NCBI GenBank assembly: GCA_028819345.1
Contig: JAPPLW010000068.1
Span: 1 to 64,000 of the forward strand
DNA: 64,000 bases
From: a bacterium
Lineage (GTDB): Bacteria; Actinomycetota; Acidimicrobiia; Spongiisociales; ZC4RG35
Reading direction: 5' to 3'
In this document: one piece after another, positions 9,797-48,782 of the stretch
Numbering within the stretch: the stretch's first letter is position 1
How the letters are laid out: every line of letters begins with the position of its first letter
Notes under the pieces: generated by a model
What the model was told of the DNA's origin: nothing
What the model saw: the letters and a program-made list of their open reading frames with translations, nothing else
The model's database searches: none
Program-made: the position numbers and the translations under genes

Positions 9797-10855
9797 CTAC
9801 CCCTCGTTGGGTGGGAGCAGGACGGTGTCGATGACGTGGATGATGCCGTTGGTGGTCTGGATGTCGGTGGCGACCACGGTGGCGTCGTTGACGCGGACGG
9901 TGTCGCCGTCGATGGTGATGGTGATGTCGGCGCCGTTGACGGTGGTGACGCTCTCTCCATTGAGGGTTGCTACCAGTTCGGAGGGCGCTTCTGTTGCCAG
10001 GACGTGGTAGGTGAGGACAGCGGTCAACAGTTCGGTGTTGGCGAGCAGTTCTCCGGCGGTGACGTCAAGGTTGGCGAGGGCGGTGGCGAAGGCTTCTTCG
10101 GTTGGTGCGAACACGGTGAAGGGGCCTTCGCTGTTGAGCGTGTCGACCAGTCCGGCTGCTTGTACCGCTGCGATGAGGGTGGGGAACGCTCCGGACGCGA
10201 CAGCGACCTCGACGATGGTCCCGGACGGTTCCGGCTGCTCTTCGGTCTCGGAGGCTTCCGGCTCCTCCTGTGCGGATGGGAGCAGGACGGTGTCGATGAC
10301 GTGGATGATGCCGTTGGTGGTCTGGATGTCGGTGGCGACCACGGTGGCGTCGTTGACGCGGACGGTGTCGCCGTCGATGGTGATGGTGATGTCGGCGCCG
10401 TTGACGGTGGTGACGCTCTCTCCATTGAGGGTTGCTACCAGTTCGGAGGGCGCTTCTGTTGCCAGGACGTGGTAGGTGAGGACAGCGGTCAACAGTTCGG
10501 TGTTGGCGAGCAGTTCTCCGGCGGTGACGTCAAGGTTGGCGAGGGCGGTGGCGAAGGCTTCTTCGGTTGGTGCGAACACGGTGAAGGGGCCTTCGCTGTT
10601 GAGCGTGTCGACCAGTCCGGCTGCTTGTACCGCTGCGATGAGGGTGGGGAACGCTCCGGACGCGACAGCGACCTCGACGATGGTCCCGGAGGCTTCCGGC
10701 TGCTCTTCGGTCTCGGAGGCTTCCGGCTCCTCCTGTGCGGATGGCGGTTGGGTTGTCGTCTCCACGACCTCCTCGGAAGTGTCCTCGCCGCATGCTGCCG
10801 CCATCAACGACACTGCAAGCGCTACAGCAAGGAACCGTGGAATGGTCCTGAACAT
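9797..10855 (-). CDS. fasciclin (FAS1) lipoprotein with two near-identical domains
   Basis: The 352-residue protein starts with a signal peptide ending in MAAAC (Cys22), so it is a surface lipoprotein. It carries two FAS1 domains with H1 (VFAPTEEAF) and H2 (NGIIHVIDTVLLP) motifs, each preceded by an acidic linker with EEPEASETEEQPE. The two domains differ by one residue (Pro versus Ala in the linker), reflecting a recent 465-base duplication. FAS1 proteins mediate adhesion or surface structure. Start ATG 10855 follows GGAGAG. The upstream SigK-type promoter ties it to the sigma/anti-sigma pair downstream. Domain length of about 130 residues is usual. Confidence 0.92.
   Translation of the reverse strand: MFRTIPRFLAVALAVSLMAAACGEDTSEEVVETTTQPPSAQEEPEASETEEQPEASGTIVEVAVASGAFPTLIAAVQAAGLVDTLNSEGPFTVFAPTEEAFATALANLDVTAGELLANTELLTAVLTYHVLATEAPSELVATLNGESVTTVNGADITITIDGDTVRVNDATVVATDIQTTNGIIHVIDTVLLPSAQEEPEASETEEQPEPSGTIVEVAVASGAFPTLIAAVQAAGLVDTLNSEGPFTVFAPTEEAFATALANLDVTAGELLANTELLTAVLTYHVLATEAPSELVATLNGESVTTVNGADITITIDGDTVRVNDATVVATDIQTTNGIIHVIDTVLLPPNEG
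9812..10276. repeat. 465-bp tandem repeat, copy 1 (FAS1 unit)
   Basis: This stretch repeats immediately at 10277-10741 with an exact offset of 465 bases, a multiple of three. I find two substitutions, close together in the linker codon that changes Pro to Ala. The unit covers one acidic linker plus one FAS1 domain, so the copy number could vary without breaking the frame. Confidence 0.95.
10277..10741. repeat. 465-bp tandem repeat, copy 2 (FAS1 unit)
   Basis: Second copy of the unit at 9812-10276. It encodes the membrane-proximal FAS1 domain and its linker. Near identity down to third codon positions indicates a very recent duplication or ongoing gene conversion. Confidence 0.95.
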
Positions 10856-11074: not shown

Positions 11075-12232
11075 GTGATCATTCTTGCAAACGGCAACAC
11101 CACCGAGGTCGCCCAACGGACCGAGGACGCCGAGCGTCTGTGGGTGCGGGTGGGCGACCTCCCCGGCGCCACCGGCTGGCAGATGAAGCCGCAGGGCATG
11201 TGCCTGGGTGAGATGTGCGTGCCGCTCCCCGACGACAAGGTCGAGGAATGGATAGCCGACGCCGAGGACTGGGTGTGGATGTGCTACTCGGAGTTCGCCG
11301 ACATGATCGGCCAGCAGTACGCGCGGGACGGCGACGTGTGGAGCCTGGGCTCGGTGCCCGACGTGCGTCGCTCCGGGCTGGAAATCGGCATAGCTCCCGA
11401 CTTCGAGGTGACCGAGCGCAGCGGCGACACGTTGCGGCTCTCGGACTTCCGCGGCCGGAAGGTGGTGCTGTTCACCTGGGCGTCGTGGTGAGGGTGCCGG
11501 GTCAGCCTGCCGGTCTGGCAGGAGTTGTACGAGTCCATCGGTTCCGACCGGTTCGAGCTGATCAGCGTGGCACAGGACTCGGGGGACCCCAAGGCCGTTG
11601 GCAGGTGGTTCGACCGGGCTTCGCCCACCTTCCGATGCGTCATCGACCCGACACACCAGATCAGCTCGCTGTTCGGCTGGGTGAACGTGCCCTCGGCGGC
11701 GTGGATCGACGAGGACGGGACCATCGTTCGCAGCAATGAGGGGACGTACCCGGGCGAGTCGACCGTCAGGTTCGGTCTCGGCAAGGTGCGCTTCGGCGAC
11801 AACTCATTCGCCCGGGCGACTCGCGACTGGATCGAGCGTGGAGCCGACAGCGAGCATGTCTGGTCCAGCACCGAACTCGCCGAGCGGCTCAAGCCTGTCG
11901 ACGACGACACCCGACTGGCGGAAGCGACGTTCAAACTGGCCCTGCACTTCGAGGCGGTCGGCGACAGCGAGCGAGCGTTGAAACACTTCGCCGCCGCACA
12001 GCGCCTGGCGCCCGACAACTGGATCTACCACCGGCAGGGTTGGACTCACCGGGGAGCGCTCTATGCCGGCCTGAAGGTGCTGAGGAGGAGCAACCACCTG
12101 CAGAAGAACACCGACAGGAGCTTCTACGACCCCACGGGGTTGCCCGGTGAGGACTTTCGCCGGTTCACCCAGCCCGAGTGGCTGTGGACCCCTGCGGTCC
12201 GGCGGTTCAAGCAACTGCTCGGCCGCCAATAG
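11075..12232 (+). CDS. selenocysteine-containing thioredoxin-fold (redoxin) protein
   Basis: The gene runs through an in-frame TGA at 11489-11491 and gives a 385-residue protein if codon 139 is read as selenocysteine. Both sides are coding in the same frame: VVLFTWASW-U-GCRVSLPVWQELYE is the strand-turn-helix of an AhpC/TlpA-type redoxin, and related proteins have Cys there. The active site is therefore U139-G-C141. N-terminal residues 1-95 form an unassigned domain rich in Cys and Trp (KPQGMCLGEMCVPLPD). Residues 95-240 are the redoxin fold, and a helical TPR-like tail follows (ALKHFAAAQRLAPDNW). GTG 11075 with GGAG upstream is the likely start. A hairpin of SECIS type follows the UGA, and selC is also in this window. 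It probably reduces peroxides or disulphides in the cytoplasm; the substrate is unknown. Confidence 0.88.
11489..11522 (+). promoter_or_regulatory. UGA (Sec) codon with bacterial SECIS-like hairpin
   Basis: Fourteen bases after the TGA a 6-bp stem CCTGCC (11506-11511) and GGCAGG (11517-11522) closes the loop GGTCT (11512-11516). The loop has the GGUCU sequence of the E. coli fdhF SECIS and lies about 20 bases past the UGA, the range at which SelB-binding hairpins act. Stem, loop and position are seen directly; SelB binding is inference. Confidence 0.8.
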
Positions 12233-48222: not shown

Positions 48223-48317
48223 TGGCGGAGGCGGACGGGAATCGAACCCGCCGGGGGTCTTTTGACCCCCCACCGGTTTTGAAGACCGGGGAGCCCACCA
48301 GGCGCTCGCTCGCCTCC
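48223..48317 (-). tRNA. selC: tRNA-Sec (anticodon UCA)
   Basis: This 95-base minus-strand tRNA has the marks of tRNA-Sec: anticodon stem CCGGT/ACCGG around the loop CTTCAAA (anticodon UCA), an extra-long variable arm with a 7-bp stem GGGGGTC-AAAA-GACCCCC, a T arm with TTCGATT and an encoded CCA (48223-48225). Acceptor GGAGGCG pairs with CGCCTCC; the eighth pair would be A-C. Together with the UGA gene at 11075-12232 it shows that the organism decodes UGA as selenocysteine. selA, selB and selD are not in the window. Confidence 0.93.
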
Positions 48318-48350
48318 GAATTGGAAGGGTACCGGGGAGAGGCTGTTACC

Positions 48351-48782
48351 GTGATGGGTATGGCCTCCCATCTGCAGGACACGGTTCCCGTAATAAGGGT
48401 CACTGGACTGGTTGAGAGCCCTGGCGAGTGGGCGATGGAGGATCTGGCCGGGTTGTCGGGGCAGGTTGGTGAGGGGGAGATACAGGGACGCGGGGTCTTG
48501 GCCGGGGCTGTCTTGGAGGCGGCGGGTCCACAGGGCGGCTACGTGTCGGTGGAGAGTGATGACGGGGCTTACCGGGCATCCATTCCTCTGGAAGAACTCT
48601 CCTCCAAGGGAGTGGTGGTCTATGGGTTGGGTGATGACCGTCTTCCCCTCGAGAGGGGCGGCCCGTTCCGGATACTGGTTCCCGAGGGGCGCACCCTGTG
48701 CTGGAACGTCAAGGGAGTGGGGGAGATGCGGGTCACCGCCGAACCGGAGCCCGACAGCGTGCCTGCCAATCCCACCCACTAG
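48351..48782 (+). CDS. sulfite-oxidase-like (molybdopterin-binding fold) small protein
   Basis: The roughly 143-residue product resembles the Moco-binding domain of sulfite oxidase relatives: VIRVTGLVESPGEWAMEDLAGL, a central YRASIPLEEL and LPLERGGPFRILVPEG, then CWNVKGVGEM. The cysteine that should bind molybdenum is not at its expected place (a GEIQGRG segment instead), so it is probably not a normal enzyme. GTG 48351 has GGGGAGAGG upstream; longer frames would overlap selC. It may be an oxidoreductase accessory. Confidence 0.6.
   Translation: MMGMASHLQDTVPVIRVTGLVESPGEWAMEDLAGLSGQVGEGEIQGRGVLAGAVLEAAGPQGGYVSVESDDGAYRASIPLEELSSKGVVVYGLGDDRLPLERGGPFRILVPEGRTLCWNVKGVGEMRVTAEPEPDSVPANPTH

What the first reader, a model, noticed from the sequence alone, without database searches (positions are those of the whole stretch)
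48223..48317. selC with atypical acceptor end marks a Sec-decoding organism
The tRNA has UCA anticodon and the very long variable arm of tRNA-Sec. It stands without selA, selB or selD. The eighth acceptor pair is A-C, so the stem may be 7+5 or 7+6 instead of the usual 8+5 bacterial layout. This and the UGA gene 37 kb away support each other.
Basis: partly seen in the sequence, partly recalled or inferred. Interest (0 to 1): 0.6.

Follow-up and report, generated by a model that had tools for sequence, protein, structure and literature searches.

The report
Selenocysteine tRNA with shifted arm junction
This is a genuine selenocysteine tRNA gene in a bacterium that carries the whole selenocysteine machinery, and its odd "mismatch" is shared by most of its phylum and fits a seven-plus-six base-pair layout instead of the textbook eight-plus-five.

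Summary
ARAGORN and Rfam both call a single-copy tRNA-Sec (79.5 bits; the genome's next RF01852 match scores 44.8). It is not tRNA-Ser or a pseudogene. selA-selB (adjacent) and selD, which itself contains an in-frame UGA, lie on other contigs of the same genome. The UGA gene 37 kb away is a ResA/WAxxUGC-like protein with a SECIS-like hairpin.

The "atypical" A8-C65 is not a defect of this gene. Among 147 distinct tRNA-Sec sequences from Actinomycetota, 96 have A/U at position 8, C/U at 65 and G48. These include named Mycobacterium, Streptomyces, Corynebacterium and Micromonospora. In them the eighth acceptor pair cannot form, but the base just 5' of the T-stem (G48) can pair with base 65. That gives 7+6 = 13 base pairs, the same helix length with the strand junction moved by one pair. 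Nearly all also share a G-U wobble next to it. Phycisphaerae and some Alphaproteobacteria show the same state. Relatives in the order and class use a 12-nt 7/5 form.

I found 9/4, 8/5 and 7/5 described in the papers held here, but not 7/6; key papers were not held. The layout is inferred from sequence and folding, not measured.

The parts
48223..48317 (-). selC, tRNA-Sec, 95 nt including encoded CCA
48280..48282 (-). anticodon UCA (in loop CUUCAAA)
48311..48317 (-). acceptor stem 5' strand GGAGGCG, 7 pairs with 48227-48233
48310..48310 (-). A8, unpaired; opposite C65 in an 8+5 reading
48303..48303 (-). single purine bulge in the 6-bp D stem (GAGC-G-CC / GG-GCUC), present in most tRNA-Sec of the class
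48252..48252 (-). G48, base just 5' of the five-pair T-stem; pairs with C at 48234 in the 7+6 reading
48234..48234 (-). C65 (eighth 3' position of the acceptor/T helix)
48235..48251 (-). T arm GCGGG-UUCGAUU-CCCGU; outer pair is the G-U wobble shared by all 96 actinomycetotal 7+6 sequences
48326..48331 (-). TACCCT, possible -10 element conserved upstream of selC in the genus (no sigma-70 consensus hit)
   Evidence: inference
11144..12232 (+). UGA-containing ResA/WAxxUGC-like gene (profile match 11144-12058; start codon not settled)
11489..11491 (+). in-frame UGA in WASW-U-GCR
11506..11522 (+). SECIS-like hairpin CCUGCC-GGUCU-GGCAGG, 14 nt after UGA
   Evidence: reading as SECIS is inference

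Best explanation
The gene is the single functional selC of a Sec-decoding actinomycetotal bacterium. Shown by sequence: UCA anticodon, G73, long variable arm, six-pair D stem, and selA, selB, selD and UGA genes in the same genome. Inferred: the amino-acid acceptor branch is a 13-pair helix divided 7+6. The eighth pair is made not by position 8 but by G48, so the crossover of the strands sits one pair closer to the acceptor end than in the E. coli 8+5 layout, and position 8 is released into the linker to the D stem. SerRS charges it, SelA converts Ser to Sec, and SelB, which prefers a 13-pair branch, delivers it to UGA codons followed by a SECIS hairpin. The neighbouring G49-U65' and C50-G64 pairs match those of E. 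coli-type tRNA-Sec, whose last acceptor pair and first two T-stem pairs are reported to reject EF-Tu, so that function is probably kept.
For: Identity. Machinery; 54 of 60 relatives have selB and 54 have selA above cut-off. UGA gene: one TGA in all 12 strong matches (own genome included), hairpin. Layout: in 24 members of the own family and 25 of the rest of the order, position 8 is A or U and 65 is C or U, never complementary, while G48 pairs with 65 as G-C or G-U. Over 123 distinct 13-nt actinomycetotal sequences, A/U at 8 goes with C/U at 65 (96/1 against 1/25; not phylogenetically corrected). RNAalifold on 8 relatives gives 7+6. Ensemble p(48:65) is 0.96 for this tRNA and median 0.94 over 101 sequences; p(8:65) is 0. 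Only one sequence has G8 with C65.
Against: G48 never varies, so there is no two-sided covariation for 48:65; the support is the joint switch at 8 and 65, base 65 staying a pyrimidine, and folding energy. Lineages with neither pair exist (9 distinct actinomycetotal sequences, 21 of the 77 named ones), so this pair is not strictly needed everywhere. No structure probing or crystal structure of such a tRNA was available. Nothing was measured in this organism.
Confidence: 0.66

Rival explanations
1. Ordinary 8+5 bacterial tRNA-Sec with a tolerated A-C mismatch at the eighth acceptor pair; G48 stays unpaired.
For: Other lineages carry G-A or G-G at the same place with no alternative pair, so a mismatch is tolerated somewhere in bacteria. 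Rfam aligns the two strands in an acceptor-stem register.
Against: The mismatch is A-C, U-C or U-U in relatives, not one isosteric pair. Position 65 is a pyrimidine in nearly all sequences where position 8 is A or U, which 8+5 does not predict. Forbidding 48:65 costs 2.4 kcal/mol.
Confidence: 0.17
2. 7/5 layout with one bulged base: G49 pairs with C65 and U65' bulges out, giving 12 pairs as in the known 12-pair tRNA-Sec.
For: U65' is invariant in all 96 actinomycetotal 7+6 sequences. Class relatives that lack one 3' nucleotide are plainly 7/5. Bulged 12-pair tRNA-Sec are described (PMC5330540).
Against: Ensemble p(49:65) has a median of 0.009 and never exceeds 0.5. A bulged base would not need to be U every time.
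Confidence: 0.14
3. tRNA-Ser (UGA-reading variant) or a degenerate pseudo-tRNA.
For: Stands alone, away from selA, selB and selD in the assembly.
Against: RF01852 79.5 bits against at most 44.8 for other tRNAs of the genome; 7 intact acceptor pairs, 6-pair D stem with compensatory changes in relatives; conserved across the genus.
Confidence: 0.01

Closest known systems
Bacterial tRNA-Sec, 8/5 type (E. coli selC)
   Same: UCA anticodon, G73, long variable arm, 6-pair D stem with 4-base loop, 13-nt 3' strand of the acceptor/T branch, G49-U65' and C50-G64 in the T-stem
   Different: Eighth acceptor pair C-G is lost (A8 opposite C65); G48 takes base 65; one purine bulge in the D stem
12-pair 7/5 bacterial tRNA-Sec (Cloacimonetes type, Rubrobacter and others; PMC5330540)
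   Same: Seven-pair acceptor stem
   Different: Here the 3' strand keeps 13 nt and a sixth T-stem pair can form; true 12-nt forms occur in another family of the same order and in other families of the class
Archaeal/eukaryotic tRNA-Sec, 9/4 type
   Same: 13-pair branch with a junction shifted relative to 8/5
   Different: Junction shifted the other way; different D arm; bacterial SelA route here
ResA-like WAxxUGC selenoproteins (NF041054), for the UGA gene of the window
   Same: WASW-U-GC motif, thioredoxin-like profile match, in-frame UGA in all close relatives
   Different: 255.9 bits, under the curated cut-off of 300

Membership tests
tRNA-Sec (RF01852) | score above gathering threshold over the whole model | tested here: met
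   79.5 bits against 47, positions 1-91
tRNA-Sec (RF01852) | UCA anticodon | tested here: met
tRNA-Sec (RF01852) | discriminator G73 | tested here: met
   GCCA follows the acceptor stem
tRNA-Sec (RF01852) | 6-pair D stem with 4-base loop (SelA recognition) | tested here: met
   6 pairs plus one bulged purine, loop UGGU
tRNA-Sec (RF01852) | 13-pair acceptor/T branch (12-pair members are also known) | tested here: inconclusive
   13 pairs if G48 pairs with C65 (p 0.96); not measured
bacterial 8/5 sub-type of tRNA-Sec | eighth acceptor pair between position 8 and 65 | tested here: not met
   A-C here; A-C, U-C or U-U in every 13-nt relative of the order examined
12-pair 7/5 tRNA-Sec | 12-nt 3' strand of the branch | tested here: not met
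   13 nt here
Sec-decoding trait | selA, selB and selD in the genome | tested here: met
   411.4, 289.3 and 377.2 bits, all above cut-off
Sec-decoding trait | UGA gene with downstream SECIS hairpin that is recoded | tested here: inconclusive
   UGA and hairpin present and conserved in genus; recoding not measured
NF041054 WAxxUGC selenoprotein | score above curated cut-off 300 | tested here: not met
   255.9 bits; WAxxUGC-like only

The most novel reading that the evidence does not exclude
A fourth tRNA-Sec layout, 7/6, is the standard form in most Actinomycetota and arose separately in Phycisphaerae and some Alphaproteobacteria. The 13-pair helix is kept while the strand junction slides by one pair, nearly always together with a G49-U65' wobble that may carry the EF-Tu-rejecting role.
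Probability: 0.4. Interest if true: 0.55.

Novelty: new variant of a known kind. Interest (0 to 1): 0.38.

Why it matters
Reviews and search tools treat bacterial tRNA-Sec as 8/5. If a large part of a major phylum, including Mycobacterium and Streptomyces, uses 7/6, then SelB and SelA probably read the length of the 13-pair helix and not the position of the junction. That can be tested directly and gives a new handle for engineering Sec insertion. The gene itself is ordinary for its lineage.

Tried and rejected
tRNA-Ser and pseudogene readings were rejected on score and conservation. A first parser mis-registered 12-nt tRNAs by one base; it was replaced by one that uses the discriminator G and both strand lengths, which left 14 sequences unparsed. 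The organism could not be named: a named locus cannot serve as the centre of a genome search. The family of roughly 1-Mb genomes in its class suggests Acidimicrobiia (inference only). Literature searches for a 7/6 tRNA-Sec found none, but the library lacks most subscription papers; Mukai et al. 2017 was not held.

Full report
What is there. ARAGORN reports one tRNA gene in the window, tRNA-SeC with anticodon TCA at 48223-48317 on the minus strand. Rfam RF01852 matches over its full 91 positions with 79.5 bits, gathering score 47. In the whole 2.8-Mb genome it is the only match above the cut-off; the remaining matches, tRNA-Ser-like, reach at most 44.8 bits. The transcript folds at -55.0 kcal/mol, z = -3.55.

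Is the organism Sec-decoding? Yes on genomic evidence. selA and selB are neighbours on contig C108 (42950-46038; 411.4 and 289.3 bits). selD on C100 (377.2 bits) contains an in-frame TGA. selA, selB and selD each reach their cut-off in 54 of 60 relatives. The gene 37 kb away in the window has a TGA at 11489-11491 in the context WASW-U-GCR. It is closest to NF041054, ResA-like WAxxUGC protein, at 255.9 bits, below that family's cut-off of 300. All 12 strong matches in this genome and its relatives carry one TGA. Fourteen nucleotides after the TGA stands the hairpin CCUGCC-GGUCU-GGCAGG. It is kept in the genus, and a different hairpin lies at the same place in more distant relatives. From general knowledge, the GGUCU loop resembles that of the E. 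coli fdhF SECIS; recoding itself was not measured.

The acceptor end. The acceptor stem has seven standard pairs. Position 8 is A, opposite C. Numbering here: 65 is the eighth base of the acceptor/T 3' strand counted back from the discriminator; 65' is its 5' neighbour; 48 is the base just 5' of the five-pair T-stem. In all members of the genus, in 24 family members and in 25 further members of the order, position 8 is A or U and position 65 C or U, so they never pair. G48 can always pair with 65, as G-C or G-U. Folding puts 48:65 at p = 0.96 for this tRNA. Forbidding the pair costs 2.4 kcal/mol, and 8:65 has p = 0. RNAalifold on eight diverse relatives gives seven acceptor and six T pairs, and compensatory changes in the D and anticodon stems confirm the alignment.

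How common it is. I parsed 147 distinct actinomycetotal tRNA-Sec sequences. 96 are 7+6 only, 24 have the 12-nt 7/5 form, 17 are 8+5, 9 form neither pair and 1 could form either. 30 of 57 families are purely 7+6. Named genomes with the 7+6 state include Mycobacterium interjectum, Streptomyces shenzhenensis, Corynebacterium kefirresidentii, Micromonospora andamanensis, Pseudonocardia nigra and Planobispora takensis. Outside the phylum they include Phycisphaeraceae, Methylobacterium and Sabulicella. Solirubrobacterales in the same phylum keep C8-G65, 8+5. Within the 123 distinct 13-nt actinomycetotal sequences, A/U at 8 and C/U at 65 go together 96 to 1 against 1 to 25 (relatedness not corrected). 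All 96 have G49-U65' as the outer T-stem pair, while the 8+5 and 'neither' groups of the phylum mostly have G-C there. Another family of the same order, and several families of the class, have lost one 3' nucleotide and are 7/5. A simple path is 8+5, then 7+6 with G-U, then 7/5 by loss of U65' (inference).

How it probably works. According to PMC6267555, the last acceptor pair and first two T-stem pairs of tRNA-Sec act against EF-Tu, and shortening the acceptor stem of E. coli tRNA-Sec moves it from SelB to EF-Tu. PMC7609411 says SelA reads the D arm. Here the D arm has its six pairs plus one bulged purine that is typical of this class. The G49-U65' and C50-G64 pairs equal those of an E. coli-type sequence (L261), and helix length is preserved by G48-C65. 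I infer normal function through SerRS, SelA and SelB with the junction shifted by one pair.

What is known. The Secmarker paper (PMC5330540) lists 8/5, 9/4 and 12-pair forms including 7/5. Because that program assumes 13 pairs when it looks for the discriminator, a 7/6 form with 13 pairs would raise no flag (inference). I found no 7/6 tRNA-Sec in the held papers, but key papers are not held. I therefore file it as a tRNA-Sec that fails the 8/5 sub-type test, and as a possible new layout variant.

Limits. G48 is invariant, so the 48:65 pair has no two-sided covariation. Lineages exist with neither pair. Fourteen sequences could not be parsed.

Noticed in passing
window 48223-48226: This selC encodes GCCA, whereas the five sampled congeners have GCTA there, so their CCA end must be added after transcription.
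   Followed up: partly
G000:C100:13418-14332: selD of this genome and of most relatives has an in-frame TGA, so SelD is probably itself a selenoprotein; a few relatives (such as G009, G011, G014, G025) have none.
   Followed up: no
G040, G053, G148, G160 (family f8 of the order): 12-nt 7/5 tRNA-Sec in the same order as the 13-nt form, with selA and selB present at least in G040 and G053.
   Followed up: partly
window 48354-48782: Divergent ORF with an oxidoreductase molybdopterin-binding domain (PF00174) starts about 36 bases from the selC 5' end, so the selC promoter probably overlaps its start.
   Followed up: partly
L224, L228, L232, L299 and others: Many named Bacillota, Armatimonadota and Gemmatimonadota tRNA-Sec have G-A, A-A or G-G at the eighth acceptor pair and no alternative pair: 21 of 77 parsed named sequences form neither.
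   Followed up: no
window 9797-10855 (-): One ORF holds two near-identical halves (SGTIVEVAVASGAFPTLIAAVQAAGLVDTL repeated), looking like duplicated fasciclin-type domains (domain name from memory).
   Followed up: no
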